A stretch of 64,000 nucleotides of DNA, from positions 80,022 to 144,021 of the forward strand of contig JADMXW010000008.1 of NCBI GenBank assembly GCA_015548865.1. The letters are read 5' to 3'. This document shows, piece by piece, positions 44,769-63,998 of this stretch (within the stretch, counting starts at the first letter, position 1; every line of letters begins with the position of its first letter). A model generated the notes under the pieces. The model did no database searches. It saw only the letters and a list, made by a program, of their open reading frames with translations, and was not told where the DNA came from. The position numbers and the translations under genes were made by a program. The stretch comes from Serratia marcescens. GTDB lineage: Bacteria; Pseudomonadota; Gammaproteobacteria; Enterobacterales; Enterobacteriaceae.

Positions 44769-45026
44769 GCTTAACTAGCCTATATTTTATATTGCTGAGA
44801 ATAAATATGATTACATCAATTAGTCGGCTTAATAATAGGGTGATATGCGTAATTTAATGCGTTAATAATCTGAAGAAGACTGTTTTGCGAGATATTTACA
44901 TGTAATGGAGCTCGGCCTTCCGGGCTGAATAAAATCGAGCCATTCATTTGTAAAGGGTTTTGGACTCGTTAGTTTTACCTGATTGTGGGAGAGGAGATAA
45001 CGTGATGAGAACATTCAGGATCCCTT
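44769..45026. other. Spacer upstream of the PipB-like gene
   Basis: 258 nt, AT-rich on the left. It should contain the promoter of the minus-strand PipB-like gene, possibly with SsrB sites that I could not delimit. From about 44985 it becomes homologous to 59425 onward (shared CATTCAGGATCC and AATCCCCCAAAACATAAGAT), the start of the duplicated ccd module. Confidence 0.5.
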
Positions 45027-45332: not shown

Positions 45333-45334
45333 GA

Positions 45335-45553
45335 TCACCAGTTCCTGTTTTCATCCGCAAACGAGCCATTCTGTGCGATAAATCGGGCGACTTCCTCCAT
45401 CCCTTCGCGGTTTTCTTTCTTCCACTTTTCTGCCTTTATGCGGCGAGCTTCTTTGCCAATAACATCATTCACCAGCCCAGAGATGTTGATTCCAGCAGCA
45501 CTCAGAACCTGATAATTGTCTTTGTCCACGGTAACGCTTACGTGGTGTTTCAT
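45335..45553 (-). CDS. ccdA: CcdA-family antitoxin, left copy
   Basis: 72 aa, the CcdA length. N-terminal ribbon-helix-helix DNA-binding part ([29 protein letters not shown]) and C-terminal toxin-binding tail ([21 protein letters not shown]). It is upstream of ccdB and would repress the operon. Differs from the copy at 59767-59985 in a few residues, so cross-neutralisation is likely. Confidence 0.92.
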
Positions 45554-45611
45554 GATAGTACTCCTATTGTGTGCATACTTTGAGTATATACTTCACGTGG
45601 TTGTTCAGCAA

Positions 45612-45810
45612 TTAGTCAAAATTCAACGCCAACCGTTTAAGCTCCTCAAAGGCATAAACCCGAAAAACATTACGGTGCTTCGTTTCCTGCGGAATGCACT
45701 GATGGCTTACGATAGCGTATTTCACGCTCCCGAACAGCCGCTCAATTGCGGATCTAGCACGATGTAGAAAGCATATATCCAAAGCTTTTGAGTATGAGCG
45801 AACAATTAGT
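45612..45810 (-). pseudogene. Remnant of a MobC-like gene, left copy
   Basis: The last ~50 residues (IERLFGSVKYAIVSHQCIP to the ELKRLALNFD end) match the C-terminus of the intact 247-aa protein at 60044-60787. The segment before that matches only after a frame change: an internal loss of about 11 nt (CTCGCTTTAT is missing) breaks the frame. All N-terminal coding sequence is gone, replaced directly by the integrase start at 45811. Confidence 0.8.
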
Positions 45811-46115
45811 ACCATGAGTAGATATTGTTAGATAAAGCCCTAAAGAATCAGTGAGCTTGTATGTTTTTTCTAGGCTTTTGGCTGAGCGGATCTTGCTATC
45901 AGTTAACATGGGCGGGTCACTCCGTTCATCGAACTGAATGACCTGTAATTTGACTCACTTTTTTCCGGATACCTAGGGATAACTAAGAACGCATTGGGAA
46001 AGATTTTTACGCCACTCTGCTTACATTAAAAACACATAGGGATTTACGGGAACGCATCGGAGGGTATAAAAGCAAAAACCCAGCCATAGGCTGGGTTTTC
46101 TGAAGAAGTGGTGCC
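45811..46115. repeat. 305-bp direct repeat, left copy, with truncated integrase
   Basis: Identical by eye to 63694-63998. It carries, on the minus strand, the first 33 codons of the integrase (45909 down to 45811), its upstream region, the tRNA-Phe-type terminator and the first bases of the tRNA end. It marks the left border of an 18-kb segment and shows that a similar island once occupied the same site. Confidence 0.9.
46075..46099 (-). terminator. tRNA-Phe terminator, left copy
   Basis: AAAACCCAGCC (46075-46085), loop ATA, GGCTGGGTTTT (46089-46099): an 11-bp perfect stem. The A run and T run make it bidirectional. Its sequence and position beside a tRNA-Phe end resemble the terminator following pheV/pheU in enterobacteria. 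Confidence 0.75.
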
Positions 46116-46297: not shown

Positions 46298-46320
46298 ACG
46301 TAATGACATTAGCGTTACGT
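46298..46320 (+). promoter_or_regulatory. Operator-like palindrome upstream of the DUF1778-GNAT operon
   Basis: ACGTAA (46298-46303) and TTACGT (46315-46320) are perfect inverted arms separated by 11 bp, 46 nt upstream of the antitoxin ATG. Ribbon-helix-helix antitoxins of this class repress their own operon through such palindromes. Confidence 0.6.
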
Positions 46321-46365
46321 GTGCTGTATGATTATCATCCAGATGACCGGTCGGAGGGTGACATC

Positions 46366-47144
<779 letters not shown>

Positions 47145-47354: not shown

Positions 47355-48122
47355 TCATTTCCGTTGTCTCATATATGCTCGAGGTGTGCTTCCGGTCATA
47401 TTCTTAAAAAATGTGGCGAAAGCACTGTCGCTGGAAAACTCTAAAATGCTGGCCACTTCAGTGATCGGGTGTGTTTCTGCCAGTAATTCAATCGCCTTAA
47501 ACAGCCGCCATTGTTGGCGCCATTGCTGATAGTTGAGCCCCGTTTCTCTCATCATAATGCGACTGATGGTTTTTCCCGTGGCTCCATTGTTCACGGCGAG
47601 TTTTCGTAGTGGTGGCGGTATTTCCATTTCACTCAAACAGTGCAAACGTCGGTCTTTTGGTAGTGGAAGAAGCGTTGACTCGCGTTGGGCACTGTGAATT
47701 TCATCCTTACACACAGCCCAAATGCGCGCTGCCGCGCCGCACTGCCAGTTCATAGAAAAATTCGCGAAAGCAATACGTTCTAATATTTCACGCAATAGTG
47801 CTGTCACGCTTAATACTTCCACATGAGGGCTGAAGGTCGGATGGCGTTGGTTATCGACATAGATAGAGCGATACCCAACAACACTACGAATTTGAACACG
47901 ATGCACAATGTTAGGGGGGATCCAGGCAATACGGGCAGGCGGTAACAGGCAAATACTGTCGTTAAGCGTGATGCGCATACAGCCTTGTTGGCTAAACAGT
48001 AACTGTCCCTTTTTATGCCAATGATGACCGGAATCATGCTGAGTTAGCTCAGAGGCAATACCTACGACATCATTGTCATGCTCATCAGGATTAAATACGG
48101 AATCTGCGGGTATCCATGCCAT
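47355..48122 (-). CDS. AraC-family regulator of the biosynthetic cluster
   Basis: 255 aa. N-terminal cupin sensor (HWHKKGQLLFSQQGCMRITL at about residues 33-55, RIAWIPPNIVHRV) and a C-terminal double helix-turn-helix (VNNGATGKTISRIMMRETGLNYQQWRQQWRLFKAIELL; ITEVASILEFSSDSAFATFFKNMTGSTPRAYMR). It diverges from the exporter gene over 96 nt and is the only regulator in the cluster. This AraC type with a short N-terminal cupin is often paired with MFS exporters, so it may sense the product. Confidence 0.9.
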   Translation of the reverse strand: MAWIPADSVFNPDEHDNDVVGIASELTQHDSGHHWHKKGQLLFSQQGCMRITLNDSICLLPPARIAWIPPNIVHRVQIRSVVGYRSIYVDNQRHPTFSPHVEVLSVTALLREILERIAFANFSMNWQCGAAARIWAVCKDEIHSAQRESTLLPLPKDRRLHCLSEMEIPPPLRKLAVNNGATGKTISRIMMRETGLNYQQWRQQWRLFKAIELLAETHPITEVASILEFSSDSAFATFFKNMTGSTPRAYMRQRK

Positions 48123-48218
48123 AAAATGTCCGATTTTATAAATTTTATGTCTGCCATTTTGTAATGGGGAAGATAATATTATGTTACTTTCTCAAAACTT
48201 AACACTATAGCAACATAA

Positions 48219-49388
48219 ATGGTTATGCAACGAAAACTAACTTTGACTTTGGCAACGTCCATGATGATGTTTCCGCAGGTGGTAGAAACGATATACAGCC
48301 CTGCTTTGACGCACATAGCCGATGGGTTTCATGTCAGTGCTGAAGTCGCAGCACAAACGTTATCCAGCTATTTTTTTGCTTTTGCGCTTGGCGTGGTGGT
48401 TTGGGGGCGGTTATGCGATGTCATTGGGCGACGACCGGTCATTTTACTGGGTCTTGGGATATACCTGTTTGCTTCCATTATGGCTGTATTAAGTGACACT
48501 TTCGCTCTCTTGCTGGGCGCACGTGTAATGGCTGCTTTTGGTGCAGCAGTCGGATCAGTGGGAACGCAAACAGCGATTCGAGATTGTTTTAACGGACAAG
48601 AACTGGCACAAGTGTTTTCTCTGATGGGAATAGCAATGGCAATCAGTCCAGCAGTGGGGGTACTGAGTGGCACAGTGCTGACGCATTACTGGGGATTTCA
48701 GGGCGTGTTCACTGGCCTGGCTGTATTAGCTGCCCTACTACTCGGTTACGCAGCATGGCAATTGCCCGAAACCCGCCCGCGACAGAGAGTGCAGGATCCT
48801 TTTTTTAGCACGTTCAAACGCATGTTAAAAGACAGTGATATTTGGCGTAGCGCTGTGCTGGTCGCACTGCTTAATATTTGCATGTTTGGTTATTACCAGC
48901 TTGCTCCCTTTCACTTTGAAGCACTGGCTATTCCACCGCAGTGGTTCGGTTATACCGGCCTGGTACTGGCTATTGGCGTAGGTATCGGCGCTGTAGTGAA
49001 TAAGGTGTTAGTAGCCAGAAACTGGATGTTTATATCGCTGTTGATATTGGCTTGTGGGTTAGGACTGTTGGGCGGGATAGTCATGTGGGTAATCGAAAAC
49101 ACCCTGTGGTTTGTATTAGCGATGATACCGGTTGTCATGGCTTACGGTATCGCCATACCCAATATTTTGGCTCGGGCGCTACGCCGTTATAAAGATTGCG
49201 TCGGAACGGCTGGCGCTATCTTGGGGCTGATGTACTACGTGATGCTGGGTGGTGGTTTGGTGTTAGCCGGTTTAACACAACGTTTAAGCGTGGTATTAAT
49301 TATCAGCACGCTGTTGATGGGGATAATGGCGTTGAGTATTTCGCGAGAAGAACGAAGATCGAATACAGCGAGTATTCAAGATAGTTAA
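48219..49388 (+). CDS. Bcr/CflA-type MFS exporter
   Basis: 389 aa, 12 membrane helices. MFS motif A between helices 2 and 3 is GRLCDVIGRRPVILLG; motif C-like GVLSGTVLTHYWG near helix 5. Bcr/CflA drug-proton antiporters export chloramphenicol, bicyclomycin, peptides and other small molecules. Placement between the regulator and the biosynthetic genes suggests it exports the product or confers self-resistance. The next gene is 118 nt downstream, so a second promoter may drive the core genes. Confidence 0.9.
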   Translation: MVMQRKLTLTLATSMMMFPQVVETIYSPALTHIADGFHVSAEVAAQTLSSYFFAFALGVVVWGRLCDVIGRRPVILLGLGIYLFASIMAVLSDTFALLLGARVMAAFGAAVGSVGTQTAIRDCFNGQELAQVFSLMGIAMAISPAVGVLSGTVLTHYWGFQGVFTGLAVLAALLLGYAAWQLPETRPRQRVQDPFFSTFKRMLKDSDIWRSAVLVALLNICMFGYYQLAPFHFEALAIPPQWFGYTGLVLAIGVGIGAVVNKVLVARNWMFISLLILACGLGLLGGIVMWVIENTLWFVLAMIPVVMAYGIAIPNILARALRRYKDCVGTAGAILGLMYYVMLGGGLVLAGLTQRLSVVLIISTLLMGIMALSISREERRSNTASIQDS

Positions 49389-49506
49389 GCGGTTATCGAG
49401 GGTGTGTCCCACAATTCATTTTCATAGTCTGACGGCTATGGAACGCTGTTTAGTAATTAAGTATTAGTATCATCGATGAGGCGTTTTATTAAAACTTAAC
49501 AATGGA

Positions 49507-49800
49507 ATGGCTATCATGTTAATTGAAGTTGAATCAAGCAAACATAAAGTCACATTGGATGGCATGGAGGTTGGGTATTTTTTTTCTAAAGAGTCGTTAT
49601 TGGATGGCTTTGAAAAAAGACAAGTGGATATTCCAAATTTATGCCGTAAAGGTACATGTGGCTGTTGCAAACTGCTTTTGCTTAAAGGTGCGGTGAAACA
49701 AGATAATCAAACCGCATTGACACAAGAAGAAATGGAGGGAAATATAATTTTGGCTTGTTGCTCTTACCCAAGAGAAGATATTGAAGTTGAAATCTATTAA
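49507..49800 (+). CDS. 2Fe-2S ferredoxin (plant type)
   Basis: 97 aa (95 from a second ATG at 49516). The cluster ligands are in CRKGTCGCC (C-x4-C-x2-C) and a later Cys in ILACCSYP. This is a small electron carrier of the kind found as a domain in oxygenase reductases. It sits 14 nt before the diiron oxygenase gene and is its obvious electron donor; reduction of the ferredoxin itself would need a host reductase. Confidence 0.9.
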   Translation: MAIMLIEVESSKHKVTLDGMEVGYFFSKESLLDGFEKRQVDIPNLCRKGTCGCCKLLLLKGAVKQDNQTALTQEEMEGNIILACCSYPREDIEVEIY

Positions 49801-49814
49801 GCAGGAGGCTTATT

Positions 49815-50732
49815 ATGAATGATATTGGTGCAATTTTGAAAAAATGGGAACGTGCTTCTATTGTACGAACACGTCCACGACGTATCCTTAATGATAAAGA
49901 TTGCCAGGCCGCACGATTTTTTCCTCCAGAACGTTTGCCGCTTTGTATGCATCCTGAAGTGATGAAAATGGGCGATGAAGTGCTTCGCTTTATTCAAGTG
50001 CAAACTTTATATCATTATTTAAATGGCATTGCCAATATTGAGCTGGATATCATCAATGATTCTAGTCATAAACTCTATAAAAATAAGGTTGGTCTTGAAT
50101 TTCCTTTGGATATGCGATTAGAGGCATTAACGGTTGTTGTAGATGAATCTTATCATGCATTAGTAGCGCTGGATCTTAGTAATCAAGTTGCGCAAATGAC
50201 GGGAATTTCCCCAATTCATATGCCAGAGGATACTGAAGCATCATATGCTTTGGCGATGGCACTTAGCGTGGCTCCTGAAGCGTTGAAAGAATTGGTTCGG
50301 TTGGTCTGCGTATCGCTTTCGGAGCAGGCATTAACAACAGATTTGATAGATGTAATAGATAATGAAAATATTTTCCCCACCTTTTATTCGGTGATGAAAG
50401 ATCATGTTGCAGATGAGGGGCGTCATGCGCGTTTTTCTCAGTTGGTGCTGGAGTATATATGGTGTCATAGCAATAGTGCGATGAAAGAGGCGATGAAAAA
50501 CCCGATAATAACCTTCATAGAAGGATACTCGACAGATAATATTTCAAAATCTTTAGGCGTACAAATATTGCGCGAAGTAAATATGGATGAATCGACTATT
50601 TCTATGGTTATTACCGACACGCATCCTCCAGCTACAACTAAACCGTGGGAGGCAAATAACATTGTTACCAAGCAAATGTTACTTGCCTTAAAGAAATCCG
50701 GAGTTCTTCCCGATCTTGCATTAATGAAATAA
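49815..50732 (+). CDS. AurF-like diiron N-oxygenase
   Basis: 305 aa, GGAGG upstream. It belongs to the AurF/CmlI p-aminobenzoate N-oxygenase family. All seven expected iron ligands can be seen: Glu in NIELDII, Glu and His in VDESYHAL, Glu in SLSEQAL, and His, Glu, His in KDHVADEGRHAR. Known members oxidise an arylamine through hydroxylamine and nitroso to nitro (AurF, CmlI, ObaC) or act on amino acids (azomycin pathway). Here the neighbours make kynurenine, which has a free aniline nitrogen, so oxidation of that nitrogen is the best guess. The gene is AT-rich relative to the core chromosome. Confidence 0.88.
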   Translation: MNDIGAILKKWERASIVRTRPRRILNDKDCQAARFFPPERLPLCMHPEVMKMGDEVLRFIQVQTLYHYLNGIANIELDIINDSSHKLYKNKVGLEFPLDMRLEALTVVVDESYHALVALDLSNQVAQMTGISPIHMPEDTEASYALAMALSVAPEALKELVRLVCVSLSEQALTTDLIDVIDNENIFPTFYSVMKDHVADEGRHARFSQLVLEYIWCHSNSAMKEAMKNPIITFIEGYSTDNISKSLGVQILREVNMDESTISMVITDTHPPATTKPWEANNIVTKQMLLALKKSGVLPDLALMK

Positions 50733-50815
50733 TTGTTCTTATAAATAAACTTAAATTTATTTAGTAAATTTTCATCAGTGACACAAGTAAATTATTTTTA
50801 ATTTGGAGGCTTCAT

Positions 50816-53800
50816 ATGGACTTATTAAATATTGGTTTCATGGGTGATGTGTCACTGGGTGAAAAAATCTTCACAGATATAGCGGAATCCGCTCATAGCG
50901 TTAATTTTTTTTCAGAAATTACGGCCGGTAACGAATGTTTTGATTTAGTTGTAATGAGTGATAATTGTCAGCATACAATTAACTTATTACAAAAGTATGC
51001 TAAAAATATCATTCTAGTAGCTTCAAGTATAAGCAATGTTGTTGATTCTTATATAATAAAAAACAATACTAATTTGTGTGTCTATTTTATTTCTAACAAA
51101 AAGCCAGGTTATCTTTGTAGGTATACGACCGACAAAGAATTACATGAGCATGAAAGTAATACCGACTGGCTTAGAGAGCAGATTAATGATATCACTATTT
51201 CGCTTTCTCGCGGCGAAGAGCCAGAGCCTTCATTTGTTCCTTACTACATGAATGAAAAATTTTATACGGAAACGCCAGAACGAATTCGTAGGTTGATATC
51301 TGTCCTGTTACAAAGACTTGGCGATCAAAGTGGGGGTACCTGTGTCAGTAATTTCGCATATCATACGTGGTTGGCAGATACTGAGTTTTTGACCATTCCC
51401 ATGGAGCAAGGGCTTATCGATGATCTTTACGCCTGTCACTTTTTTTTCAACGAAACAGGGGAAGCAAAACGGAGTAAATACGTCAAAACACATGTCATGA
51501 TAACCGTATTATCTCAAGATGCAGGCTCTCTGGTAACAGTTTCAGGGGATGATTCGCGTTTTCAGCGTTTTACACAATATCTAGACACATTACAGCAGGC
51601 GTCGGTTGATCCTGTCTATGCGCCTATCGTAGCTGAAGATGGAGAGTTGGTACAACTAAGCAGTTTCAATAATACCCATAATGATGCGCTGCTCCAGCAT
51701 GATGTTATCACCTTATTTCGGCATATGGCCTCACAGTTCCCACAGTCTATGGCTTTGTATACGAATGAGTGCTGCTACAGTTATGGTGAGTTAGATATTG
51801 CTTCCGATAAAATGGCCTGTTGGCTGCTGGGACGTAGCACAAAAAATTCCCAAGTGGTGGCAGTGTCTTTACAGAAGTCTGTTTTGCTGTTGATTGTACT
51901 GCTTGGTATTTTAAAAAGTAATAAAACTTATGTGCTCCTAGACCCACAGGCACCGGCAGAACGGAATCAGCGAATACTTGACGATGCGCAGCCAAGCCTA
52001 ATTTTGGCTGAAACACCTTTTCTAGCGAAGAATACACCTTGTGTGTGTCCGGTTGATATTGACTACGAAAAAATGCAGGTTGATAGTCAGATGTTGCCGA
52101 TACCAGTAAATGGGCTTGCTTATATTTGCTACACTTCTGGCACTACTGGCATACCCAAAGGGGTCATGATTACCAGGGCCGGCCTCAGTAATGTGGCACA
52201 GAATCATCGTGACTTTATTGGGCTGAAGCCTGGAAGTCGTGTGCTATCTATTGCCTCTTTGGGATTTGATGCTTTTGGCTGGGATGTGTTTGGTGCTTTT
52301 GTCAGTGGGGCTACAGTCTATCTGGCGTCCAACACCTTACATAATAATGTCAAAGCTCTGCACCATTATCTCGTTAAGCATAGAGTAGAGCATGCAACGC
52401 TCACTCCGGCTGTTTTAGAGCTACTGCCTCGCGAGTCTTGGGACGAGTTACGTTCATTAATTGTTATGGGCGACGCACCCCCGGAAAATGTAATTACTTG
52501 GTGGTCTACCCAGACTCGTTTATTCAACGGCTACGGACCGACTGAAGCAACTATTGCAACATCTTTGTGCGAATATACTGAAGGTGTCAGTTGGAATTGT
52601 ATAGGTAAGCCATTACACAATTATCGATGTTATATTCTTGATAAAAATAATAACCTACTCCCCATTGGGTTTGAGGGGGAGCTTTGTATTGCAGGGATAG
52701 GTCTTGCTAGCGGTTACCTAAATCAACCGCTACTTACTAATGATAAATTTGTAACATTCAGAATGTCGGGCAGCTATCATGATGAACGTATTTATAAAAC
52801 TGGCGATGTGGCCAAATGGGATGGCTTGGGGAATATTATATTCATCGGTCGCAGAGATAACCAGATTAAAATACGAGGGATTCGTATTGAAACGGGTGAG
52901 GTTGAAGCAGCAATACGGAACCATCAGCAGGTAGTAAGTGTTTGTGTATTGGCTAAAGGTCAAGATAGTGATAAAAAACTGGTAGCATTTGTGCAAACAA
53001 TGTCTTCCAACATTAGCGAAGCTATTTTACGTGATTCATTGGTTTCACTACTTCATCCAGCAGCGATCCCAAGTGTATTCGTCTTTTTGGCATCATTGCC
53101 TTTATCTTCTAATGGAAAAATCGATCGTCATCAATTAGAAAATTTTCCGTTGGAAGATATTGCTCGGGATTTTGTAAAGGCAGAAACAAAAACTGAATCC
53201 ATTTTAGAGCGGATAGTTGCAAAAGCAATAGACTGCATTCATGTTGATGTAACTCAAGATTTTATTAGTCTAGGTGCGCACTCGCTCACAATGAGCAGAA
53301 TTGTGGCATTAATCGCTCGCGATCTTGATTGTCGATTAAGCATTGCAGATATATTTCAGCGCAATACTGTTCGTAAATTGGCAGGATTTATTGACGAACA
53401 AAACACGGTAACGAGACAAATTGTGGTTATCAGTCAAGAGAGACAGGGGCCACTTAGCCCGCAACAGCATTTACTGTGGTTCCTGAGCGCCTTAAACCCA
53501 GATGATTGTAGCTATAACCTTCCTATTGCTATTGAGATCCGCGGTGCACTTGATTTAGAATTATTTGAAGACGCTATCAATTTCATCTATGAGAAACATG
53601 AAAGCTTGCGTACTCAGTTTGGCGACTTGCAAGGAGTTGCGTATCAATATGCCAATCCCCACACACCAATAAATCTTCGCGATCACTATATTGATGCTCA
53701 ACATGAGTCTGTGGATGCTATGGTCAAAAGATTATGTGCTATACCATTTGACATTATCAAACATCCCCCAGTTGTGTTGCGATTAGTAAAGTATGGTGAT

Positions 53801-56539
53801 TCACATCACGTGTTGATTTGGATAAAACATAATATTATAACTGATGCTTGGAGTGAGAAGTTAATACTTAACGATCTTTGTCAGTATTATAATAATGTGA
53901 ATTATCAAACGGAACTTTCGATATCTTCGTCGACAATACAGACAATAGACTTTGCTAATATGTTGAAGGATAGGTCTAGCGAGGATGATATTACATACTG
54001 GCAGCAACAACTTAAAGGGTGTGAAGAGCTGGATTTTCCCCTGGATAAATCACGTCCAATGTTACCCGATCACGCTGGTGAGGTAGTTCACTATTACTTC
54101 GACTCTGTTTCAACTGACTTACTGGCGGCGAAAGCAAAAGAAAATGGTGTCACGCCATTTGTTCTGCTGCTTTCAGCGCTCAACTATTTATTGAGTAAAT
54201 ATACTCATCAGCAGGATATCGTCATTGGAACAGCAATTGCTGCTCGTGATGATGTGGAGAGTGCTCAAGTCAGTGGTTTTCATGTCAATACGGTACCTCT
54301 AAGGACTGTTTTGAGTGCAGATGATAGCATCGCTAACCTGATCGAAAAAACGGCGGCAACTTGTATCAACGCCTGGCGACATCAATATCTGTCCTTTGAC
54401 AAAATTCTTCATCTTATTGAGCAGGAACGAGTGCCGAACAAAAATCCACTCTTTCAAATCATGGCTATTTTACAAAACACGGGAGACCGCTGCCAAACCA
54501 ACTTGAACGGTTGCACCTTGCAGCGTTTGCCTGTGGTGTCAGGATTTTCAATGTTCGATATGACGTGGAACTTCAGCTTGGAGGAAAACGGTTTAGCGGT
54601 TGAACTGCATTTTTCTAGTGAACTGTTCAATTTTGAATCGATGAGGATGATGTTGGATAATTATGAGCAAATCCTCAACGAGCTACTTACACTTCCTGTA
54701 TTGACGCCACTTACGTTAGTCAATCCATTATGTAAAGCAGAACAACGCTGGTTACTCTCTCAGGCCAGTAACTTAAATAGCAGCGTACGTAAGACCTTGC
54801 TTGATCAAATACAGACTCTAGCCCATACCAGACCCAATAATATCGCGGTGAGTTGCGACCACAATCAGTACAATTATGGACAATTGTGGGCTGCATCGGA
54901 ATATATTGCCCAAGCGTTACATGCGCTAGATAGCGAAGTTTTCTCCGTGGGTATCATGATGGAAAAGAGTTGCCGAGTGGCAGCGTTGATACTCGGAGTA
55001 CTTAGAGCGGGCAAACATTATGTTCCTATAGACGTACATTACCCGGCTGAGCGTATACGTTATATGATTGACAATGCAAGCATGAAAGTTCTTGTGACTG
55101 ACGATGAAGCTAGGTCACTACAGTGTGGTGTGACGCAAATACCCTTTAGCAAGCTCGCAATCCCACCCAATTCTCCTGTGAAGCTTGAGAGCCCTGAAGA
55201 TAATAGTCTTTCTTATATTATGTATACCTCCGGATCAACAGGTAATCCCAAAGGCGTTATGGTCACCTACGGAAACTTAAATAATTTCACTAACTCTTTA
55301 GCTGACACGCTCACTCTAAGCATGAAGGACAAGATATTAAGCTTAACTAGCATTAGTTTTGATATATTTGGACTTGAGTTATTTTGCAGCTTGGTTAGTG
55401 GTGCTCATGTGGTACTCTGCTCGCGCGAAACAATAATGGACCCAGTAAAGCTGTACCATTTTATTCTGCAGCAGCAACCAACAATTATTCAGGCTACACC
55501 CACCGTATGGGGGACCATTGTCAATCACTTACCCGCATCATCAGATGGCATGCTTACGGTATTGTGTGGTGGTGAAAAAATGCCTAGTGCTCTACTAGGT
55601 CCGTTGCGTCGAATTTCCAATCGAGTGTTGCAGGTTTATGGGCCGACGGAGACCACAATATGGTCAACCTGTGTTGACCTGACAAACACAGGTGACAGTG
55701 CCTGTATTGGTAAGCCGATCAATATGACTGATGCTTATATAATGAATGATCAGGGATGTCTTGTGCCTAGCGGCGCATATGGTGAGCTCTGCTTGGGAGG
55801 CGCGGGGGTTTCACCCGGCTATTGGAATAATCCAGAATTAAGCGCTAAATCATTTGTATACCGAGAAGTATTTGGCATTGAGCGATATCTATATCGTACT
55901 GGTGATATTGTACGTCTTAATCGACAAGGACTATTGGAATATGTAGGGCGTAACGATCTACAGGTAAAGATTCGTGGGCATAGAATTGAACTGAGTGAGA
56001 TTGATCTTAAGTTATCTTCGTTGGATAATATAGAGAAGTCGTTAAGTTTGATTATGGGGGAAGGCCATCAAGCAAGCATTATAAGTTATGTGAAATTGAC
56101 TTCAGGTAGTGAATTAAATGAGAGTGTGGTGAGAGCGAAATTGAAGGAGCTCCTACCAAATATAATGATTCCTGCTGGTTTCGTGGTATTGAGTGATTTC
56201 CCTCTTACCAATAATAACAAGATCGATGTTCGTAAATTACCTTTGCCTAAAATAACCAGATCTTTATCAGAACTAGACTATGTCCACCCATCCAATGGGA
56301 TGGAGTGTACGATGCAAAGTATCTGGCAGAGAGTACTAGAGCAGGATCAGATAAGTGTAACTGATAGTTATTTCAGTTTGGGTGGTAACTCACTGCAAAT
56401 TCCTCAACTACTCCATCTTATATATCAGGAGATGGGTGTTTTAATAACTATCCGTGATTTTATTATGCATAATCATATTCGTGAATTGGTCTTGCTGATA
56501 CAGAGTGGGGATAGTGGGGTGTCGCATGACATCCATTAA
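50816..56539 (+). CDS. Nonribosomal peptide synthetase, A-PCP-C-A-PCP
   Basis: 1907 aa. Residues 1-270 match no domain I know. A1 spans about 290-780 with YTSGTTGIPKG (437), NGYGPTEATI, YKTGDVA and a lysine in SNGKIDR (766). PCP1 carries the phosphopantetheine Ser in LGAHSL (about 823). The C domain spans about 880-1320; its HHxxxDG motif reads HNIITDA (about 1004), so the catalytic second His is Asn. A2 spans about 1335-1810 with YTSGSTGNPKG (1470); PCP2 has LGGNSL (about 1857). There is no thioesterase or reductase at the end. My reading of the specificity codes is DAWTIMGIAK for A1, an aromatic type between Phe and the daptomycin kynurenine code, and DILQLGVIWK for A2, close to Gly codes. 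Predicted backbone: aromatic (perhaps kynurenine)-Gly. Confidence 0.92.
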   Translation: MDLLNIGFMGDVSLGEKIFTDIAESAHSVNFFSEITAGNECFDLVVMSDNCQHTINLLQKYAKNIILVASSISNVVDSYIIKNNTNLCVYFISNKKPGYLCRYTTDKELHEHESNTDWLREQINDITISLSRGEEPEPSFVPYYMNEKFYTETPERIRRLISVLLQRLGDQSGGTCVSNFAYHTWLADTEFLTIPMEQGLIDDLYACHFFFNETGEAKRSKYVKTHVMITVLSQDAGSLVTVSGDDSRFQRFTQYLDTLQQASVDPVYAPIVAEDGELVQLSSFNNTHNDALLQHDVITLFRHMASQFPQSMALYTNECCYSYGELDIASDKMACWLLGRSTKNSQVVAVSLQKSVLLLIVLLGILKSNKTYVLLDPQAPAERNQRILDDAQPSLILAETPFLAKNTPCVCPVDIDYEKMQVDSQMLPIPVNGLAYICYTSGTTGIPKGVMITRAGLSNVAQNHRDFIGLKPGSRVLSIASLGFDAFGWDVFGAFVSGATVYLASNTLHNNVKALHHYLVKHRVEHATLTPAVLELLPRESWDELRSLIVMGDAPPENVITWWSTQTRLFNGYGPTEATIATSLCEYTEGVSWNCIGKPLHNYRCYILDKNNNLLPIGFEGELCIAGIGLASGYLNQPLLTNDKFVTFRMSGSYHDERIYKTGDVAKWDGLGNIIFIGRRDNQIKIRGIRIETGEVEAAIRNHQQVVSVCVLAKGQDSDKKLVAFVQTMSSNISEAILRDSLVSLLHPAAIPSVFVFLASLPLSSNGKIDRHQLENFPLEDIARDFVKAETKTESILERIVAKAIDCIHVDVTQDFISLGAHSLTMSRIVALIARDLDCRLSIADIFQRNTVRKLAGFIDEQNTVTRQIVVISQERQGPLSPQQHLLWFLSALNPDDCSYNLPIAIEIRGALDLELFEDAINFIYEKHESLRTQFGDLQGVAYQYANPHTPINLRDHYIDAQHESVDAMVKRLCAIPFDIIKHPPVVLRLVKYGDSHHVLIWIKHNIITDAWSEKLILNDLCQYYNNVNYQTELSISSSTIQTIDFANMLKDRSSEDDITYWQQQLKGCEELDFPLDKSRPMLPDHAGEVVHYYFDSVSTDLLAAKAKENGVTPFVLLLSALNYLLSKYTHQQDIVIGTAIAARDDVESAQVSGFHVNTVPLRTVLSADDSIANLIEKTAATCINAWRHQYLSFDKILHLIEQERVPNKNPLFQIMAILQNTGDRCQTNLNGCTLQRLPVVSGFSMFDMTWNFSLEENGLAVELHFSSELFNFESMRMMLDNYEQILNELLTLPVLTPLTLVNPLCKAEQRWLLSQASNLNSSVRKTLLDQIQTLAHTRPNNIAVSCDHNQYNYGQLWAASEYIAQALHALDSEVFSVGIMMEKSCRVAALILGVLRAGKHYVPIDVHYPAERIRYMIDNASMKVLVTDDEARSLQCGVTQIPFSKLAIPPNSPVKLESPEDNSLSYIMYTSGSTGNPKGVMVTYGNLNNFTNSLADTLTLSMKDKILSLTSISFDIFGLELFCSLVSGAHVVLCSRETIMDPVKLYHFILQQQPTIIQATPTVWGTIVNHLPASSDGMLTVLCGGEKMPSALLGPLRRISNRVLQVYGPTETTIWSTCVDLTNTGDSACIGKPINMTDAYIMNDQGCLVPSGAYGELCLGGAGVSPGYWNNPELSAKSFVYREVFGIERYLYRTGDIVRLNRQGLLEYVGRNDLQVKIRGHRIELSEIDLKLSSLDNIEKSLSLIMGEGHQASIISYVKLTSGSELNESVVRAKLKELLPNIMIPAGFVVLSDFPLTNNNKIDVRKLPLPKITRSLSELDYVHPSNGMECTMQSIWQRVLEQDQISVTDSYFSLGGNSLQIPQLLHLIYQEMGVLITIRDFIMHNHIRELVLLIQSGDSGVSHDIH

Positions 56540-57362
56540 CATCCTTCACTGTGGGCGTCTACATTACATAAATTATAATCAGTCTGTTCGGTTGTCAGTT
56601 AGAATCGATTTATGTAACAACTTAATCAATATTTATGGTGGTGTACCCGCTAGCCAAGAGCCTTTAATTTATGATTCCCATATTGCCAGTGTCAGTCATG
56701 GCGGAGCCTGCAATGCCTCGCAAATTCATCTTGTACCACACTGTCATGGTACTCATACTGAGTGCGTAGGCCATATTTTACCAGAGAAGTATCATGTGGC
56801 CGATATAAAATTTGAGCCATTTATTGCAGCTACTTTTATCAGGGTAACTCCACAGCGCATAGATGCAACGACAGAGGAATATAATGCTTATGCTAACAAC
56901 AGCGATTATGTCATAACTCGTGTAGCAATAGACAATGCACTAACGTTTTTTAGTGCGGATTACTTCCAGGCATTGGTCATTGCATCCGATGCAGTAGGTT
57001 GGTTACCGGAAGGAACTTCTGCCCCTTACTTTACATATCAAGCTATGGATCGGATCGTTGCATTGGGAGTGCGCCATCTTTTAGTGGACATTCCATCAAT
57101 TGACCGTCTACACGATGGTGGTCGCATGGACAATCATAGATGCTTTTGGGGGATTAATGAAAATGTAGGTATTAAACAGATGCGGGCCAGTTGCTCAGTT
57201 ACCGAGATGATTCGGGTTCCGCAGGAGATATCGGAAGGCCACTATTTTTTGTCAGTTTACTTACCAGATATTTCTGGAGATGCGCTTCCCAGCATGCCTA
57301 TGCTATTTCCGTTTTCTTTAATGGACGACATTAAATTAATTATTCAGGTTACCTGCAACTAA
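56526..57362 (+). CDS. Kynurenine formamidase-like cyclase-family hydrolase
   Basis: 278 aa from the ATG at 56526, which overlaps the NRPS stop (upstream GTG at 56505 less likely). Metal-dependent cyclase/KynB superfamily: the HxGTHxD-type motif appears as HCHGTHTECVGH (Glu in place of Asp), with a later DIPSIDRLHDGGRMDNHRCFWG. KynB removes the formyl group from N-formylkynurenine. Since tryptophan dioxygenase follows, this is the matching second step. Its coding frame overlaps the dioxygenase frame by 28 nt. Confidence 0.82.
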   Translation: MTSINILHCGRLHYINYNQSVRLSVRIDLCNNLINIYGGVPASQEPLIYDSHIASVSHGGACNASQIHLVPHCHGTHTECVGHILPEKYHVADIKFEPFIAATFIRVTPQRIDATTEEYNAYANNSDYVITRVAIDNALTFFSADYFQALVIASDAVGWLPEGTSAPYFTYQAMDRIVALGVRHLLVDIPSIDRLHDGGRMDNHRCFWGINENVGIKQMRASCSVTEMIRVPQEISEGHYFLSVYLPDISGDALPSMPMLFPFSLMDDIKLIIQVTCN

Positions 57363-58072
57363 ATAAATTACTTACGCTTCAGCAGCCACTCTCACCTGCT
57401 AGTGAGCATCGTAACGAAAATCTGTTCATTATTACTCATCAAACGTATGAACTTTGGTTTAGACAATTAATATTAGAGATTCATTATGTTATAGATGCCA
57501 TTGAAGTTGGGGAAATCCCCACTGCCATTGATGCTGTGCAACGAGTCAATGCCATAACTCAGACAATAGTTAATCAAATTAGTGTAATTCGTACGCTAAA
57601 ATATCATGAATTTCAGCGATTTCGTAGCTATTTGGGGACGTCTAGTGGTTTACAGTCTTGGCAATTTGCGGGCATAGAGGCCATATTAGGCAAAGTAAAT
57701 CAAAAAAAGATGCAACAATATAATAAAGATAGTGCTATCCAGCATAGCCTGGAGGAAATTATCCGACCAGTTTCCTTGTGGCAGGCAGTTAAATCTCATT
57801 TATTGAAATGGTCCGATATTTCTGGAGTTGAATCTAGGGATATAATTGAACTGATAAAAATTTTATTAGAAAAACCTTCGTGCGAGTCATTGTTGCTTAA
57901 TCACCTTCTAGACTTGGATGCTCTTTTGCAGGAATGGCGATACCAGCATGTAAAACTGGTAGAACGGACCATCGGTCTAAATCGAGGGACTGGCGGGACA
58001 TCAGGGTTAGATTATCTGAAAACTACCTTATTCACGCCAATATTTGAAGAGTTGTGGGAAGCATTTAACTAA
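57335..58072 (+). CDS. Tryptophan 2,3-dioxygenase with non-standard start
   Basis: 245 aa if counted from the first codon after an in-frame TAA (57332-57334). The protein begins INYSGYLQLNKLL, matching the YxxYLxLDxLL start of the family, but the codon at 57335 is ATT and no ATG, GTG or TTG occurs until 57536. Conserved catalytic parts are all present: Phe and His in LFIITHQTYELW (active-site base), Arg in FQRFRSYLGTSSG, the heme-ligand His in WRYQHVKL and Thr in RGTGGTSG. The enzyme opens tryptophan to N-formylkynurenine. Starting at 57536 would delete the active-site His. Translation may begin at ATT, be coupled to the upstream gene, or a base may be misread. Confidence 0.85.
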   Translation: MNYSGYLQLNKLLTLQQPLSPASEHRNENLFIITHQTYELWFRQLILEIHYVIDAIEVGEIPTAIDAVQRVNAITQTIVNQISVIRTLKYHEFQRFRSYLGTSSGLQSWQFAGIEAILGKVNQKKMQQYNKDSAIQHSLEEIIRPVSLWQAVKSHLLKWSDISGVESRDIIELIKILLEKPSCESLLLNHLLDLDALLQEWRYQHVKLVERTIGLNRGTGGTSGLDYLKTTLFTPIFEELWEAFN

Positions 58073-58144
58073 ATCCCCCTTAGTTTGAATGGGTTTCACA
58101 CATGGTTTTAAAATTGTCGCACTGACGACTATAAGTGATAATCG

Positions 58145-58897
58145 ATGAACATATTACCTACGCTGAGTTTATCGCGTTGTCTAAAAAAGCTTACGCATCA
58201 GAGTCATCAGACCACTGTGCGAATGGTTTTTTTCCCCCATGCTGGTGCTAGTGCGAGTATTTTTTCTTCATGGGTTGAGCTCATGCCTTCTAACATTGAG
58301 ATGTTTGCTGTGGAATATCCTGGGCGTGGGGGACGTATATCTGAGAATGCCGTTTGCGATCCGCAAAACTTGATTAACGAGATAGCACATGCATTGGAGT
58401 TGTTGCCAAATAAGCCCTGTATTTTTTTCGGGCATAGTCTTGGGGGCAGGCTGGCGCTGGCAGTTTCTTTAATAATCTCGAAGCCTCCTATACAGCTCAT
58501 TGTTTCTGGTTGTACAACGCCTTATTTAGCTCGGCATAATCATTTTTTACGTCTTACTCGTAATTTAATGATCTATGAGTTGATAAAATCAGGAATGGTT
58601 AACTTTAGCACTTTCAGTGATTCTGACTTGCTTGATTATTATTTACCACTCATCCGTGCGGATATGTATCTCGCAAATCAGTTGGTTTTTTCACGTGAAA
58701 CTTACTGTTATTTCCCTATACTTTTCTATTTTGGGGAGGATGATCCCTGGTTAAACGAAGAAGATGTGGAGGATTGGAAGCGATTGACTGATGGAAAGTT
58801 TGAACAGATTAAATTACCTGGCAACCACATGTTTATTTATCAGAAAAAGGAAAAAGTAATCGATTTCCTTCAGTGTAGGCTAAATGATTTTAAATAA
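58145..58897 (+). CDS. Type II thioesterase
   Basis: 250 aa alpha/beta hydrolase of the GrsT/TEII group: PHAGASASIFSSW, the nucleophile in FFGHSLGGRLAL (Ser about residue 100), Asp in FYFGEDDPW and His in LPGNHMFIY. Such enzymes clear misloaded carrier proteins. Because the NRPS has no terminal release domain, it may also release the dipeptide product. It is the last gene of the cluster. Confidence 0.9.
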   Translation: MNILPTLSLSRCLKKLTHQSHQTTVRMVFFPHAGASASIFSSWVELMPSNIEMFAVEYPGRGGRISENAVCDPQNLINEIAHALELLPNKPCIFFGHSLGGRLALAVSLIISKPPIQLIVSGCTTPYLARHNHFLRLTRNLMIYELIKSGMVNFSTFSDSDLLDYYLPLIRADMYLANQLVFSRETYCYFPILFYFGEDDPWLNEEDVEDWKRLTDGKFEQIKLPGNHMFIYQKKEKVIDFLQCRLNDFK

Positions 58898-59202: not shown

Positions 59203-59385
59203 ATGAAAATAGCCTTTTGCTGCTTGCCAGCACTTATCCTCTCCGCCAGTGCCTCTGCTGGTGCCGTCATTTATACCGACAGCAAGCATCCGGTGCCGGA
59301 TGGTCAAAATGCCCCCGTCGTTTTTCTGGATGCGCAAGAGCATGTTCATGTAAGTATCCCGCTAAACCGGGCCATTCATTTTTAG
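59203..59385 (+). CDS. Truncated integrative-element protein (PFL_4709/TIGR03757 type)
   Basis: 60 aa from the ATG at 59203 behind GGGAG. A signal peptide (CLPALILSASASAGA) is followed by VIYTDSKHPVP and VVFLDAQE, matching from memory the N-terminal part of small secreted proteins encoded by SXT/PFGI-like integrative conjugative elements. Full members are about 130 aa or more, so the C-terminal half is missing. Evidence that the island descends from a conjugative element. Confidence 0.6.
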   Translation: MKIAFCCLPALILSASASAGAVIYTDSKHPVPDGQNAPVVFLDAQEHVHVSIPLNRAIHF

Positions 59386-59458
59386 ATGTATTTCGGTTCA
59401 TTGGTGTTACCCCATTTCGGAGAGAGGAGGGAATGTGATGCAACATTCAGGATCCCCC

Positions 59459-59764
59459 TCAAATCCCCCAAAACATAAGATTAATCGCATCCTTAATCTC
59501 ATCCGCACAGTCGCCAAGATCCGCGATAGTCTCACCAATGACCTCAATGGGAACGCTCGATAGTTCAGTTGTCATCAGCCGATAATCTTCGCCGTCGATG
59601 CGAATCAGCGGGAACAGCGTTTTATTCACTTTCTCAGACAGATGGTGTGCTTCGATAAGCGGAATGACCATGCGCCGCTTGGGTGTCTCGACAATATCAC
59701 TCTGCACATCAACAAACATTGTGTAGTGACTGGCTCTTTTATATTGATAAACAATGAATTGCAT
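59459..59764 (-). CDS. ccdB: CcdB-family toxin, right copy
   Basis: 101 aa from the ATG at 59764; N-terminal [21 protein letters not shown] and C-terminal NLMFWGI intact. It differs from the left copy (45027-45332) at a limited number of positions, mainly in the centre. A functional gyrase toxin is likely. Confidence 0.92.
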
Positions 59765-59766
59765 GC

Positions 59767-59985
59767 TCACCAGTTCCTGTTTTCATCAGCAAAGGAGCCA
59801 TGCTGTGCGATAAATCGGGCGACTTCCTCCATCCCTTCGCGGTTTTCTTTCTTCCACTCTTCAGCCCTGATGCGGCGGGCTTCTTTGCCAATGGCGTCAT
59901 TCACCAGCCCGGAAATATTGACTCCGGCAGCACTCAGAACCTGATAATTGTCTTTGTCCACGGTAACGCTGACGCGGTGTTTCAT
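59767..59985 (-). CDS. ccdA: CcdA-family antitoxin, right copy
   Basis: 72 aa, ribbon-helix-helix N-terminus and the conserved [17 protein letters not shown] tail. Operon order ccdA-ccdB on the minus strand as in the left copy. Lies next to an intact MobC-like gene, so this is the undamaged version of the module. Confidence 0.92.
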
Positions 59986-60043
59986 GATAGTGCTCCTCTC
60001 GTGTGCATACTGTGAGTATATACTCCGTGTGGTTGTTCAGCAA

Positions 60044-62529: not shown

Positions 62530-63792
62530 TCAATGCTTCCCTGCGTTACTCCGCGCATAAACATAGGGCGCGACATAACCCTCTCGATTGACATCCAGAT
62601 AATCTGACCACCACTGCATCATTTCGATTCTGGCTTCCAGATGCTCCGCCTTATGTACGTAAGCCGCCCGCACGCCGTTGCGCTCTTTGTGACTCATTTG
62701 TCGCTCGATGGCATCCTTTGACCACCGTCCGGACTCGTTCAGGGCGCTACAGGCCATGGTCCTGAAACCGTGGCCGCACACCTCGGTTTTGGTGTCATAG
62801 CCAATAACGCGCAGCGCCTTGTTGATGGTGTTTTCACTCATCGGCTTGTTCTGCGTATGTGCGCCCGGAAAAACAAAGACTGATTCGCCAGAAATTGCCC
62901 TAATCTGCTCCAGCAGGGCGACCGCCTGCTGCGACAGTGGCACCAGATGTTCATCCCTCATTTTTGCGCCACGCTCTGAGAACCTCACGCCGTTTACCGC
63001 TTCACGCTGGGGTGGCACAGTCCAGATATGCGCTTTCAGGTTGAATTCATCCCAGCGGGCAAGACGTAGCTCACTGGCGCGCAGGAAAACATGGAGATTA
63101 AGTTCCAGCGCTAGTCGAGTTAGCATCCGACCTTGGTAGCTATCAATCTTCATCAGCAGTTCTGGTAGGCGTTTCAACGGCAGGGCGGGGTGATGTTGGG
63201 TCACAACCGGGGTCACAACGCCATCCAGATCGTAAGCTGGATTGTATTTGATCACGCCTTGCTGCACCGCATGACGCATGATTTTGGTCAGATGCTGGCG
63301 CACCCGACCAGCGACGTCATGCACGCCTTTATCGTCAATTGCTTTAACCAGTTGTGCCAGATGGCGGGTTTCAATCTGAGCGATATCCATCGCGCCAATC
63401 GCGGGGAAAACGTAGCGTTTCAGGCAGGTGAGGATTTTATCGGCGTGCGCATCCGACCACAGCTTAAGGCTGCTGGTGTGCCAGCCAGTGGCGATATAGC
63501 GAAACGTTCTTGATTCATCCACTGTGACCTTTTCTGCTTTACGAGACAGTGAAGGGCAGACACCGGATGCCAGCAACTTACGCGCCGCATCGCGCTTTTC
63601 ACGGGCTGCTGCTAATGAAATCAACGGGTAAGCGCCAAGGGCGAGGCGGTTCTCTTTACGATCAAAGGTATAACGGAAATACCACCGCTTAGCACCATGA
63701 GTAGATATTGTTAGATAAAGCCCTAAAGAATCAGTGAGCTTGTATGTTTTTTCTAGGCTTTTGGCTGAGCGGATCTTGCTATCAGTTAACAT
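62530..63792 (-). CDS. int: P4-type tyrosine integrase
   Basis: 420 aa, full length. Residues 1-90 are the DUF4102 arm-binding domain (LTDSKIRSAKSLEKTYKLTDSLGLYLTIS); the core-binding domain follows; the catalytic domain at about 210-400 has the first Arg in LHVFLRASELRLARWDE, His-x-x-Arg in GHGFRTMACSAL, a later His in MSHKERNGV and the Tyr in RAAYVHKAEHLEAR. P4-type integrases act at tRNA 3' ends, and a tRNA-Phe-type end lies just outside its start. It would catalyse excision of the island using the repeat borders. Confidence 0.94.
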   Translation of the reverse strand: MLTDSKIRSAKSLEKTYKLTDSLGLYLTISTHGAKRWYFRYTFDRKENRLALGAYPLISLAAAREKRDAARKLLASGVCPSLSRKAEKVTVDESRTFRYIATGWHTSSLKLWSDAHADKILTCLKRYVFPAIGAMDIAQIETRHLAQLVKAIDDKGVHDVAGRVRQHLTKIMRHAVQQGVIKYNPAYDLDGVVTPVVTQHHPALPLKRLPELLMKIDSYQGRMLTRLALELNLHVFLRASELRLARWDEFNLKAHIWTVPPQREAVNGVRFSERGAKMRDEHLVPLSQQAVALLEQIRAISGESVFVFPGAHTQNKPMSENTINKALRVIGYDTKTEVCGHGFRTMACSALNESGRWSKDAIERQMSHKERNGVRAAYVHKAEHLEARIEMMQWWSDYLDVNREGYVAPYVYARSNAGKH

Positions 63793-63998
63793 GGGCGGGT
63801 CACTCCGTTCATCGAACTGAATGACCTGTAATTTGACTCACTTTTTTCCGGATACCTAGGGATAACTAAGAACGCATTGGGAAAGATTTTTACGCCACTC
63901 TGCTTACATTAAAAACACATAGGGATTTACGGGAACGCATCGGAGGGTATAAAAGCAAAAACCCAGCCATAGGCTGGGTTTTCTGAAGAAGTGGTGCC
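63694..63998. repeat. 305-bp direct repeat, right copy
   Basis: Identical by eye to 45811-46115. It holds the first 33 codons and upstream region of the intact integrase, the terminator AAAACCCAGCC-ATA-GGCTGGGTTTT (63958-63982) and TGGTGCC of the presumed tRNA end. The last bases of the window (TGGTGCCGG) differ from the left copy (TGGTGCCCGG) by one C, so whether a full tRNA-Phe follows cannot be seen here. Confidence 0.88.

What the first reader, a model, noticed from the sequence alone, without database searches (positions are those of the whole stretch)
47355..58897. Island-borne NRPS cluster that appears to build an N-oxidised kynurenine peptide
An AurF-type diiron N-oxygenase with a dedicated ferredoxin, a two-module NRPS, a kynurenine formamidase-like enzyme and tryptophan 2,3-dioxygenase are adjacent with exporter, regulator and TEII. 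TDO plus formamidase yield kynurenine. No kynurenine monooxygenase, kynureninase or transaminase is present, so kynurenine itself, not anthranilate or kynurenate, is likely the building block. Its aniline nitrogen is a natural AurF target. Chemically, an ortho-hydroxylamino aryl ketone can close to a 2,1-benzisoxazole, so a nitro, nitroso or anthranil dipeptide is possible. I know of no described pathway with this exact gene set.
Basis: partly seen in the sequence, partly recalled or inferred. Interest (0 to 1): 0.93.

Follow-up and report, generated by a model that had tools for sequence, protein, structure and literature searches.

The report
Gene cluster for N-oxidised kynurenine-glycine peptide
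A cluster of eight bacterial genes, also found in Photorhabdus and Serratia, is predicted to turn tryptophan into kynurenine, would likely oxidise its backbone nitrogen on an assembly line and likely join it to glycine, a small peptide for which our paper searches listed no known match.

Summary
Three points change the reading. (1) The N-oxygenase keeps all seven metal ligands but is only 17-19% identical to the arylamine enzymes AurF and CmlI; it groups (100/100) with HamC and Alb2-like proteins, whose reported or proposed targets are alpha-amines of NRPS starter residues. A homologue is fused to a starter module in Fluviispira. So the alpha-amine, not the aniline, is the likelier target. HamC also oxidised p-aminobenzoate in vitro, so aniline attack stays open. 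(2) A2 has a glycine code (9/10 with an althiomycin-type glycine starter). A1 is an aromatic code as near Phe as Kyn (7/10 each); TDO and formamidase-like genes in all five complete clusters argue for kynurenine. (3) The catalytic second His of the condensation domain is Asn in all five. An alpha-oximino kynurenine could close on its gamma-ketone to an isoxazole. Ten paper searches listed no such cluster (titles and abstract starts seen). In the window the TDO frame has no canonical start codon.

The parts
47355..48122 (-). AraC-family regulator, divergent from the exporter
   Evidence: PF12833 64.3 bits, PF02311; orthologues 60-63% in four relatives, two of them cut
48219..49388 (+). Bcr/CflA-type MFS exporter, likely efflux of the product or self-resistance
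   Evidence: PF07690 144.6 bits; TIGR00710 192.7 bits, just under its cut-off of 200.9; orthologues 74-75%
49507..49800 (+). 2Fe-2S ferredoxin, predicted electron donor of the diiron oxygenase
   Evidence: PF00111 50 bits; fdx_plant 54.9 and YfaE (maintenance ferredoxin of class I ribonucleotide reductase) 51.1 bits, both below their cut-offs; cysteines 46, 51, 54, 84 fit CX4CX2C...C; orthologue upstream of the oxygenase in 4 other complete clusters and in L004/L019
49815..50732 (+). PF11583 diiron N-oxygenase of the NRPS-partner branch
   Evidence: PF11583 58.6 bits; all 7 AurF ligand positions kept as E76 E111 H114 E170 H197 E201 H204; tree
50816..51715 (+). N-terminal region of the NRPS (residues 1-300) ahead of A1, function unresolved
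   Evidence: no Pfam match in window or in L002, L003; AlphaFold2 pLDDT 38.8, not usable
51716..53155 (+). A1 domain, pocket read as DAWTIMGIAK (large aromatic, kynurenine-compatible)
   Evidence: PF00501; pocket positions read by eye, Lys; identical in 5 of 5 clusters
53270..53287 (+). PCP1 core LGAHSL with the phosphopantetheine serine
   Evidence: PF00550, motif in 5 of 5 clusters
53426..54745 (+). Condensation domain
   Evidence: PF00668 239 bits; best solved relatives Txo2/Txo1
53825..53851 (+). altered C-domain motif KHNIITDAW: second His of HHxxxDG is Asn, Gly is Ala
   Evidence: alignment to Txo2; HN in 5 of 5 clusters and in L005 and L007, HH in L006
54746..56245 (+). A2 domain, pocket read as DILQCGVIWK (glycine)
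   Evidence: 9/10 with the first A domain of the Alb4-like NRPS in L015
56378..56395 (+). PCP2 core LGGNSL; no releasing domain follows
   Evidence: PF00550
56526..57362 (+). cyclase-family metal hydrolase, likely N-formylkynurenine formamidase
57335..58072 (+). tryptophan 2,3-dioxygenase, 245 codons, first aligned codon ATT
   Evidence: PF03301 161.2 bits; haem ligand and substrate residues kept except Y113F; only TDO found in the genome
58145..58897 (+). stand-alone type II thioesterase, candidate release enzyme
   Evidence: PF00975 85 bits; GHSLG at residue 96; orthologues in 4 other complete clusters
45806..46115 (.). left copy of 310-nt exact direct repeat flanking the island
63689..63998 (.). 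right copy of the 310-nt repeat, overlapping the 5' end of the integrase gene
62530..63792 (-). tyrosine integrase of the island
   Evidence: PF00589, PF13356, PF22022

Best explanation
Eight adjacent genes near an integrase gene encode a two-module peptide synthetase, a diiron N-oxygenase that groups with HamC and Alb2-like proteins rather than with AurF, a ferredoxin and a tryptophan dioxygenase with a formamidase-like neighbour; together they would make kynurenine, likely load it on the first carrier, are predicted to oxidise its alpha-nitrogen there, and likely join it to glycine. Steps: (1) TDO cuts free L-Trp to N-formylkynurenine (predicted from conserved residues). (2) The KynB-fold hydrolase removes the formyl group (inferred). 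(3) A1 loads kynurenine on PCP1 (inferred from co-conserved genes and a permissive pocket). (4) The ferredoxin-fed oxygenase turns the alpha-NH2 into a hydroxylamine or oxime on PCP1 (inferred from the HamC/Alb2 branch and from a natural fusion). (5) An alpha-oxime facing the gamma-ketone could close to 5-(2-aminophenyl)isoxazole-3-carbonyl (chemical inference). (6) The HNIITDA condensation domain joins it to glycine on PCP2 (glycine: pocket match). (7) The stand-alone thioesterase releases the product and the MFS pump exports it (inferred).
Against: A1 code is 7/10 to taromycin Kyn, 6/10 to daptomycin Kyn, but also 7/10 to recalled PheA; L. londiniensis has a near-identical code (DAWTVMGIGK) in a genome with no TDO found, so the pocket need not mean kynurenine. 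HamC oxidised p-aminobenzoate in vitro, and the 2018 ham paper gave the oxidation of valine presumably to HamA, not HamC (PMC5878181, passages). For Alb2 the timing is unclear in the paper, and the drawn route has it act on the late, ACP-bound chain (PMC3445576). The AurF/CmlI rows were partial and only two; the root is at the midpoint. The N-terminal NRPS region could not be linked to Alb4 or HamD by profile comparison (probabilities 0.1-1.4%), so no docking domain is shown. The KFA has Glu where KynB has Asp and falls far below the arylformamidase cut-off. TDO lacks a canonical start in this strain. The C domain lacks the catalytic His.
Confidence: 0.46

Rival explanations
1. One reading: kynurenine is loaded and the N-oxygenase oxidises its aniline nitrogen, giving a nitro, nitroso or 2,1-benzisoxazole (anthranil) dipeptide.
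For: Kynurenine has an ortho-acyl aniline; the founding members AurF and CmlI act on arylamines; HamC, in the same branch as this enzyme, turned p-aminobenzoate into p-nitrobenzoate in vitro (PMC5878181 passage).
Against: Separate branch from AurF/CmlI and 17-19% identity; homologues lie near or in NRPS starter modules in genomes where no TDO was found; the reported or proposed natural targets of HamC and Alb2 are alpha-amines.
Confidence: 0.25
2. A1 loads an ordinary aromatic amino acid (Phe, Tyr or Trp), whose alpha-nitrogen is oxidised; kynurenine is made for another step, for instance a later acylation, or TDO and hydrolase act on a Trp-derived intermediate.
For: A1 code equally close to Phe; L. 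londiniensis has a nearly identical A1 code and the readable part of the same A2 code with no TDO found in its genome.
Against: TDO and KFA are present in 5 of 5 complete clusters; in the window the NRPS, KFA and TDO frames overlap; among the 8 genes none other than the NRPS looks like a user of kynurenine; TDO keeps the residues that bind free Trp; code 3/10 to the CDA Trp pocket.
Confidence: 0.2
3. A decayed or silent cluster in this strain: the TDO frame has no canonical start and the C domain lacks the catalytic His, so little or no product is made.
For: ATT at the aligned start of the TDO; HN instead of HH.
Against: HN is shared by all five clusters and two distant loci, so it is not decay here; the other seven frames are open with canonical starts; a public copy of the formamidase-like protein (P0121, identical over 95% of the window protein) ends earlier than in the window, so an ordinary junction seems to exist elsewhere, though the TDO next to it was not seen; ATT is a known rare start codon (recalled).
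Confidence: 0.1

Closest known systems
Althiomycin cluster alb1-alb6 (Serratia marcescens Db10; PMC3445576, passages)
   Same: MFS exporter, PF11583 N-oxygenase, NRPS whose first module lies behind an N-terminal region, external TEII; an alb-like locus lies in G409, a genome of the window's family; a glycine pocket 9/10 identical
   Different: Alb2-like oxygenase only 25-26% identical; alb has a methyltransferase, a hybrid NRPS-PKS and, among its six genes, no TDO, formamidase or ferredoxin; glycine is the starter there and the predicted second residue here. G409 carries both clusters
ham / pvf / mgo clusters (fragin, valdiazen; mangotoxin-linked)
   Same: PF11583 oxygenase beside an NRPS; HamC said to work on carrier-bound L-valine (PMC11659414)
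   Different: ham has HamA, HamE and a single A-T-reductase NRPS (PMC5878181); no such genes or domain among the 8 here; no TDO or formamidase in the ham gene list
Kynurenine-containing NRPS products (daptomycin, taromycin, terreazepine, aspkyncin)
   Same: kynurenine-loading module with a related pocket (daptomycin, taromycin: PMC9113097 passages) or a dioxygenase repurposed for the cluster (terreazepine: abstract start in the listing)
   Different: no N-oxygenase is mentioned in the passages or abstract starts seen; those papers were not read whole
AurF / CmlI arylamine N-oxygenases
   Same: family PF11583, seven metal ligands
   Different: 17-19% identity, separate branch at 100/100; no NRPS starter partner for AurF (recalled)

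Membership tests
PF11583 diiron N-oxygenase family | score above the Pfam cut-off | tested here: met
   58.6 bits against 29.6
PF11583 diiron N-oxygenase family | seven metal ligands (positions recalled for AurF) | tested here: met
   7 of 7 in the window, 25 of 25 rows
AurF (4-aminobenzoate N-oxygenase) proper | NCBIfam NF045603 cut-off | tested here: not met
   15 bits against 620
NRPS-partner branch (HamC, Alb2) | groups apart from arylamine enzymes | tested here: met
   split at 100/100; only two partial arylamine rows, midpoint root
NRPS-partner branch (HamC, Alb2) | gene next to, or fused with, an NRPS starter module | tested here: met
   83 nt upstream of the NRPS; fused in L006
NRPS-partner branch (HamC, Alb2) | oxidises the alpha-amine of a carrier-bound amino acid | not testable with these tools
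   needs enzyme assay
Althiomycin (alb) cluster | NRPS-PKS line Alb4-Alb5 plus methyltransferase Alb3 | tested here: not met
   two NRPS modules only, no methyltransferase among the 8 genes
ham/pvf/mgo cluster | A-T-reductase NRPS with HamA and HamE homologues | tested here: not met
   no reductase domain in the NRPS and no such genes among the 8
Tryptophan 2,3-dioxygenase | PF03301 cut-off and haem/substrate residues | tested here: met
   161.2 bits against 34.9; Y24 F51 H55 R117 S124 G125 H240 T254 kept, Y113 is Phe (roles of residues recalled)
Tryptophan 2,3-dioxygenase | NCBIfam TIGR03036 cut-off | tested here: inconclusive
   118.6 bits against 390.7, but only the 178-residue internal ORF was given to that library
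Kynurenine formamidase (KynB) | NCBIfam TIGR03035 cut-off | tested here: not met
   21.5 bits against 223
Kynurenine formamidase (KynB) | fold | tested here: met
Kynurenine formamidase (KynB) | metal motif HxGTHxD (recalled) | tested here: inconclusive
   HCHGTHTECVGH: Glu in place of Asp, in all 14 aligned members
Canonical NRPS condensation domain | HHxxxDG motif | tested here: not met
   HNIITDA; domain score itself 239 bits
Kynurenine-loading A domain | pocket code of DptD or Tar10 (PMC9113097) | tested here: inconclusive
   6/10 and 7/10, PheA recalled 7/10
Glycine-loading A domain | pocket code of a known glycine module | tested here: met
   9/10 with the first A of the Alb4-like NRPS in L015

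The most novel reading that the evidence does not exclude
The cluster builds an isoxazole from tryptophan: kynurenine on the first carrier is oxidised at its alpha-nitrogen to an oxime, which closes on the side-chain ketone to 5-(2-aminophenyl)isoxazole-3-carbonyl, and a condensation domain with Asn in place of the catalytic His passes it to glycine. This would be a carrier-bound route to isoxazoles and a use of kynurenine that none of our paper searches listed.
Probability: 0.22. Interest if true: 0.87.

Novelty: new variant of a known kind. Interest (0 to 1): 0.64.

Why it matters
A cluster conserved in Photorhabdus, Serratia and relatives (one Serratia NRPS protein cluster stands for 179 member sequences) has no product that our paper searches listed. 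It combines dedicated kynurenine supply with an NRPS-partner diiron N-oxygenase and a ferredoxin. It offers a direct test of what decides between alpha-amine and arylamine oxidation in PF11583, because its predicted substrate has both nitrogens. The His-to-Asn condensation motif, fixed in the five clusters, bears on the open debate about what the second His does (PMC11546977, passages).

Tried and rejected
Docking-domain idea: the NRPS N-terminal region (1-300) looked like the N-termini of Alb4 and HamD by eye (GHxV pattern), but profile comparison gave probabilities of 0.1-1.4% (7 pairs), Pfam gave nothing, AlphaFold2 gave pLDDT 38.8, so no fold search was made and the idea is not claimed. 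A protein search with that region gave 4 proteins.

Plasmid origin: no KFA match in plasmids at E 1e-30; the 8 AurF matches there are below 60% identity. The cluster had no near match in E. coli genomes.

tRNA-borne island: the repeat ends in a stretch that looks like a tRNA 3' end by eye, but ARAGORN found none in the window or in 19.9 and 12.0 kb beside it; a run of N follows the right repeat, so this is not excluded and not claimed.

KFA homologues of Pectobacterium, Rahnella, BIT-l23 and the P. syringae group (P0123, P0127, P0130, P0132) may mean clusters without the N-oxygenase, since no oxygenase homologue above 40% named after those taxa is among the 120 of 156 rows listed; unnamed rows could be theirs. 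I could not see their loci: the KFA alignment hit 1 of 394 order genomes (E 1e-70) and 2 of 369 class genomes (E 1e-60), own included. Left open.

Host name: not found; G000 is unnamed and the only one of five genomes searched in its genus with an oxygenase match.


Full report
What is there. The eight genes of the finding are real and in the stated place. The NRPS of 1907 residues has an N-terminal region of about 300 residues with no family match, then A-PCP-C-A-PCP, and ends behind the second carrier without a thioesterase or reductase domain. Genes from exporter to thioesterase run in one direction; NRPS and formamidase-like gene overlap by 14 nt, the latter and the TDO by 28 nt. The TDO needs a correction: the mechanical start at 57536 is internal; the frame opens at 57335 and codes a full 245-residue TDO (PF03301 161.2 bits), but its first aligned codon is ATT, where L002 and L003 have canonical starts. 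A public protein identical over 95% of the window's formamidase-like protein (P0121) ends earlier than it does, so another copy seems to have an ordinary junction there; the TDO beside it was not seen.

It recurs. A scan of genome contigs (one genome for each of 84,980 species, by the tool's description) with the N-oxygenase alignment gave six loci. Photorhabdus sp. CRCIA-P01 (L002) and Serratia ureilytica (L003) hold the whole set; L004 (P. bodei) is cut by its contig end. Family-wide, 4 of 392 genomes (own included) match with the oxygenase and the same 4 with the formamidase-like protein. Two of them, G409 and G739, give complete clusters (L020, L018); G724 is split over contigs: ferredoxin and oxygenase on C73 (L019, the same length as L004), formamidase-like gene and TDO on C60, the NRPS not seen. 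So there are five complete clusters with the window. Order-wide 2 of 394 genomes match the oxygenase (the second, G004, is the althiomycin type by gene order); in the genus 1 of 5. The exporter-regulator pair sits at the 5' end in the window and at the 3' end in the other four. With an integrase gene, a 310-nt exact direct repeat at either side and a GC of 41.7% against 47.4% for the window, the island reading holds.

The N-oxygenase. All seven metal ligand positions are kept, in 25 of 25 aligned rows (positions recalled from AurF). In a maximum-likelihood tree of 25 rows the two arylamine enzymes are split from the other 23 at 100/100; this cluster's eight rows lie among HamC, Pseudomonas homologues, Alb2-like proteins and NRPS-linked proteins of Legionella, Fluviispira and a Legionellales MAG. 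Only two partial arylamine rows were used, the root is a midpoint, and 11 of the 22 inner branches are firmly supported. I took L026 for a ham locus from its gene order (haem-oxygenase-like, oxygenase, A domain, cyclase-like, read by eye) and L015 for an alb locus from the order MFS, oxygenase, next gene, NRPS of 2376 aa, near the printed 266.68 kDa of Alb4. That the Pseudomonas rows are MgoC or PvfB is recalled, not tested.

What that branch does. The 2024 ham paper says that the L-valine tethered to HamD is oxidised by HamC (PMC11659414, passages), and a review calls this likely (PMC11705231, passage). Alb2 is essential for althiomycin and is proposed to oxidise the chain's amino group, that of the first glycine, to an oxime; the authors call the timing unclear and draw it on the late chain (PMC3445576, passages). 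In Fluviispira the oxygenase and A-PCP-C are one protein. The Legionella londiniensis locus has an oxygenase, an A1 read as DAWTVMGIGK, an HN condensation motif and an A2 whose readable part is DILQCG, with no TDO found in its genome; nor was one found in the Fluviispira or Legionellales genomes (0 of 3 as held, completeness not told). So the partnership of oxygenase and starter module does not need kynurenine. This favours the alpha-amine. The results against it: purified HamC turned p-aminobenzoate into p-nitrobenzoate, and the 2018 authors gave the oxidation of valine presumably to HamA (PMC5878181, passages). So a member of this branch can take an aniline.

What the modules load. A2 reads DILQCGVIWK, 9/10 with the first A of the Alb4-like NRPS in L015; the first althiomycin module is predicted to load glycine in PMC3445576. 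A1 reads DAWTIMGIAK in all five clusters. Kynurenine pockets are DAWTTTGVGK and DAWTTTGVAK (PMC9113097, passages): 6/10 and 7/10. Recalled PheA is 7/10 too, the CDA Trp pocket 3/10. The pocket alone does not name kynurenine, and the Legionella pocket in a genome without a TDO hit warns against leaning on it. The case for kynurenine is the gene set: TDO and formamidase-like genes in 5 of 5 complete clusters; the only TDO found in the window's genome; no kynureninase hit. Of five other genomes with the cluster, three hold a second TDO elsewhere and two Photorhabdus ones do not. The TDO keeps the residues that hold free Trp (roles recalled), which fits cutting before loading. The genome has two phosphopantetheinyl-transferase-family matches, so carriers can be primed.

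An altered condensation domain. The motif HHxxxDG reads HNIITDA: the second His is Asn. This holds in 5 of 5 clusters and in L005 and L007; L006 keeps HH (7 of 8 examined). A review says that loss of this His does not always abolish activity and that its role is debated, and names an HQ variant at work (PMC11546977, passages). The family-wide change speaks for altered function, not decay. The one search that held the term 'HNxxxDG' showed no paper with that string among the 12 listed of 40.

Proposed working. Trp to N-formylkynurenine to kynurenine (predicted); loading on PCP1 (inferred); ferredoxin-fed oxidation of the alpha-amine to hydroxylamine or oxime on PCP1 (inferred); possible closure of the oxime on the gamma-ketone to an isoxazole (chemistry, untested); condensation with glycine (predicted); release by the stand-alone thioesterase and export (inferred). 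Shown directly are the genes, their conservation, the metal and haem residues, the branch of the oxygenase, the glycine-type pocket and the Asn motif.

Known or new. Ten paper searches were made. Judged from titles and abstract starts of capped lists, none listed a cluster with this gene set. The library holds open-licence papers only, and MIBiG could not be searched. I file it as a new variant of a known kind: an NRPS cluster with an NRPS-partner N-oxygenase, as in althiomycin and fragin, with a kynurenine supply added.

Noticed in passing
57335-57362: The TDO frame has no canonical start codon in this assembly (ATT at the aligned start) and the preceding formamidase-like frame runs on into it; L002 and L003 have ordinary starts. 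Real variant or sequencing error is not known.
   Followed up: partly
53825-53851; L002, L003, L018, L020, L005, L007: Catalytic second His of the C-domain motif is Asn in all five clusters and in two distant AurF-linked NRPSs.
   Followed up: partly
L006 10004-14644: Fluviispira multicolorata (Bdellovibrionota) has an AurF-family domain fused to A-PCP-C of an NRPS.
   Followed up: partly
L005 about 9965-15903: Legionella londiniensis has a parallel oxygenase plus two-module NRPS with a similar A1 pocket and a glycine-type A2 but no TDO found in its genome; the reading frame is interrupted and part is masked.
   Followed up: partly
L007 4629-13915: A Legionellales MAG has TEII, oxygenase, a gene that looks like an exporter by eye, and a two-module NRPS with a glycine-like second pocket: another relative of this cluster type.
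   Followed up: no
44932-45746 and 59364-60178: An 815-nt repeat of 86% identity with a CcdB-family gene in each copy lies on both sides of the cluster.
   Followed up: partly
L027 3690-4230 (just right of the window): Right of the window the assembly has a run of N and then another copy of the end of the 310-nt repeat, so islands may lie in tandem.
   Followed up: no
43935-44768: Pentapeptide-repeat protein with a PipB2_N domain (107.8 bits), so it looks like a secreted effector, just left of the island.
   Followed up: no
46303-47144: TacA-like antitoxin and GNAT acetyltransferase pair inside the island; 80-82% DNA identity to Klebsiella and Salmonella records of the plasmid collection.
   Followed up: partly
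window cluster compared with L002, L003, L018, L020: The divergent AraC-MFS pair sits at the 5' end here but at the 3' end of the cluster in the four other complete loci.
   Followed up: no
290-3391: hut genes (urocanate hydratase, histidine ammonia-lyase) with 75% identity to E. coli plasmid records.
   Followed up: no
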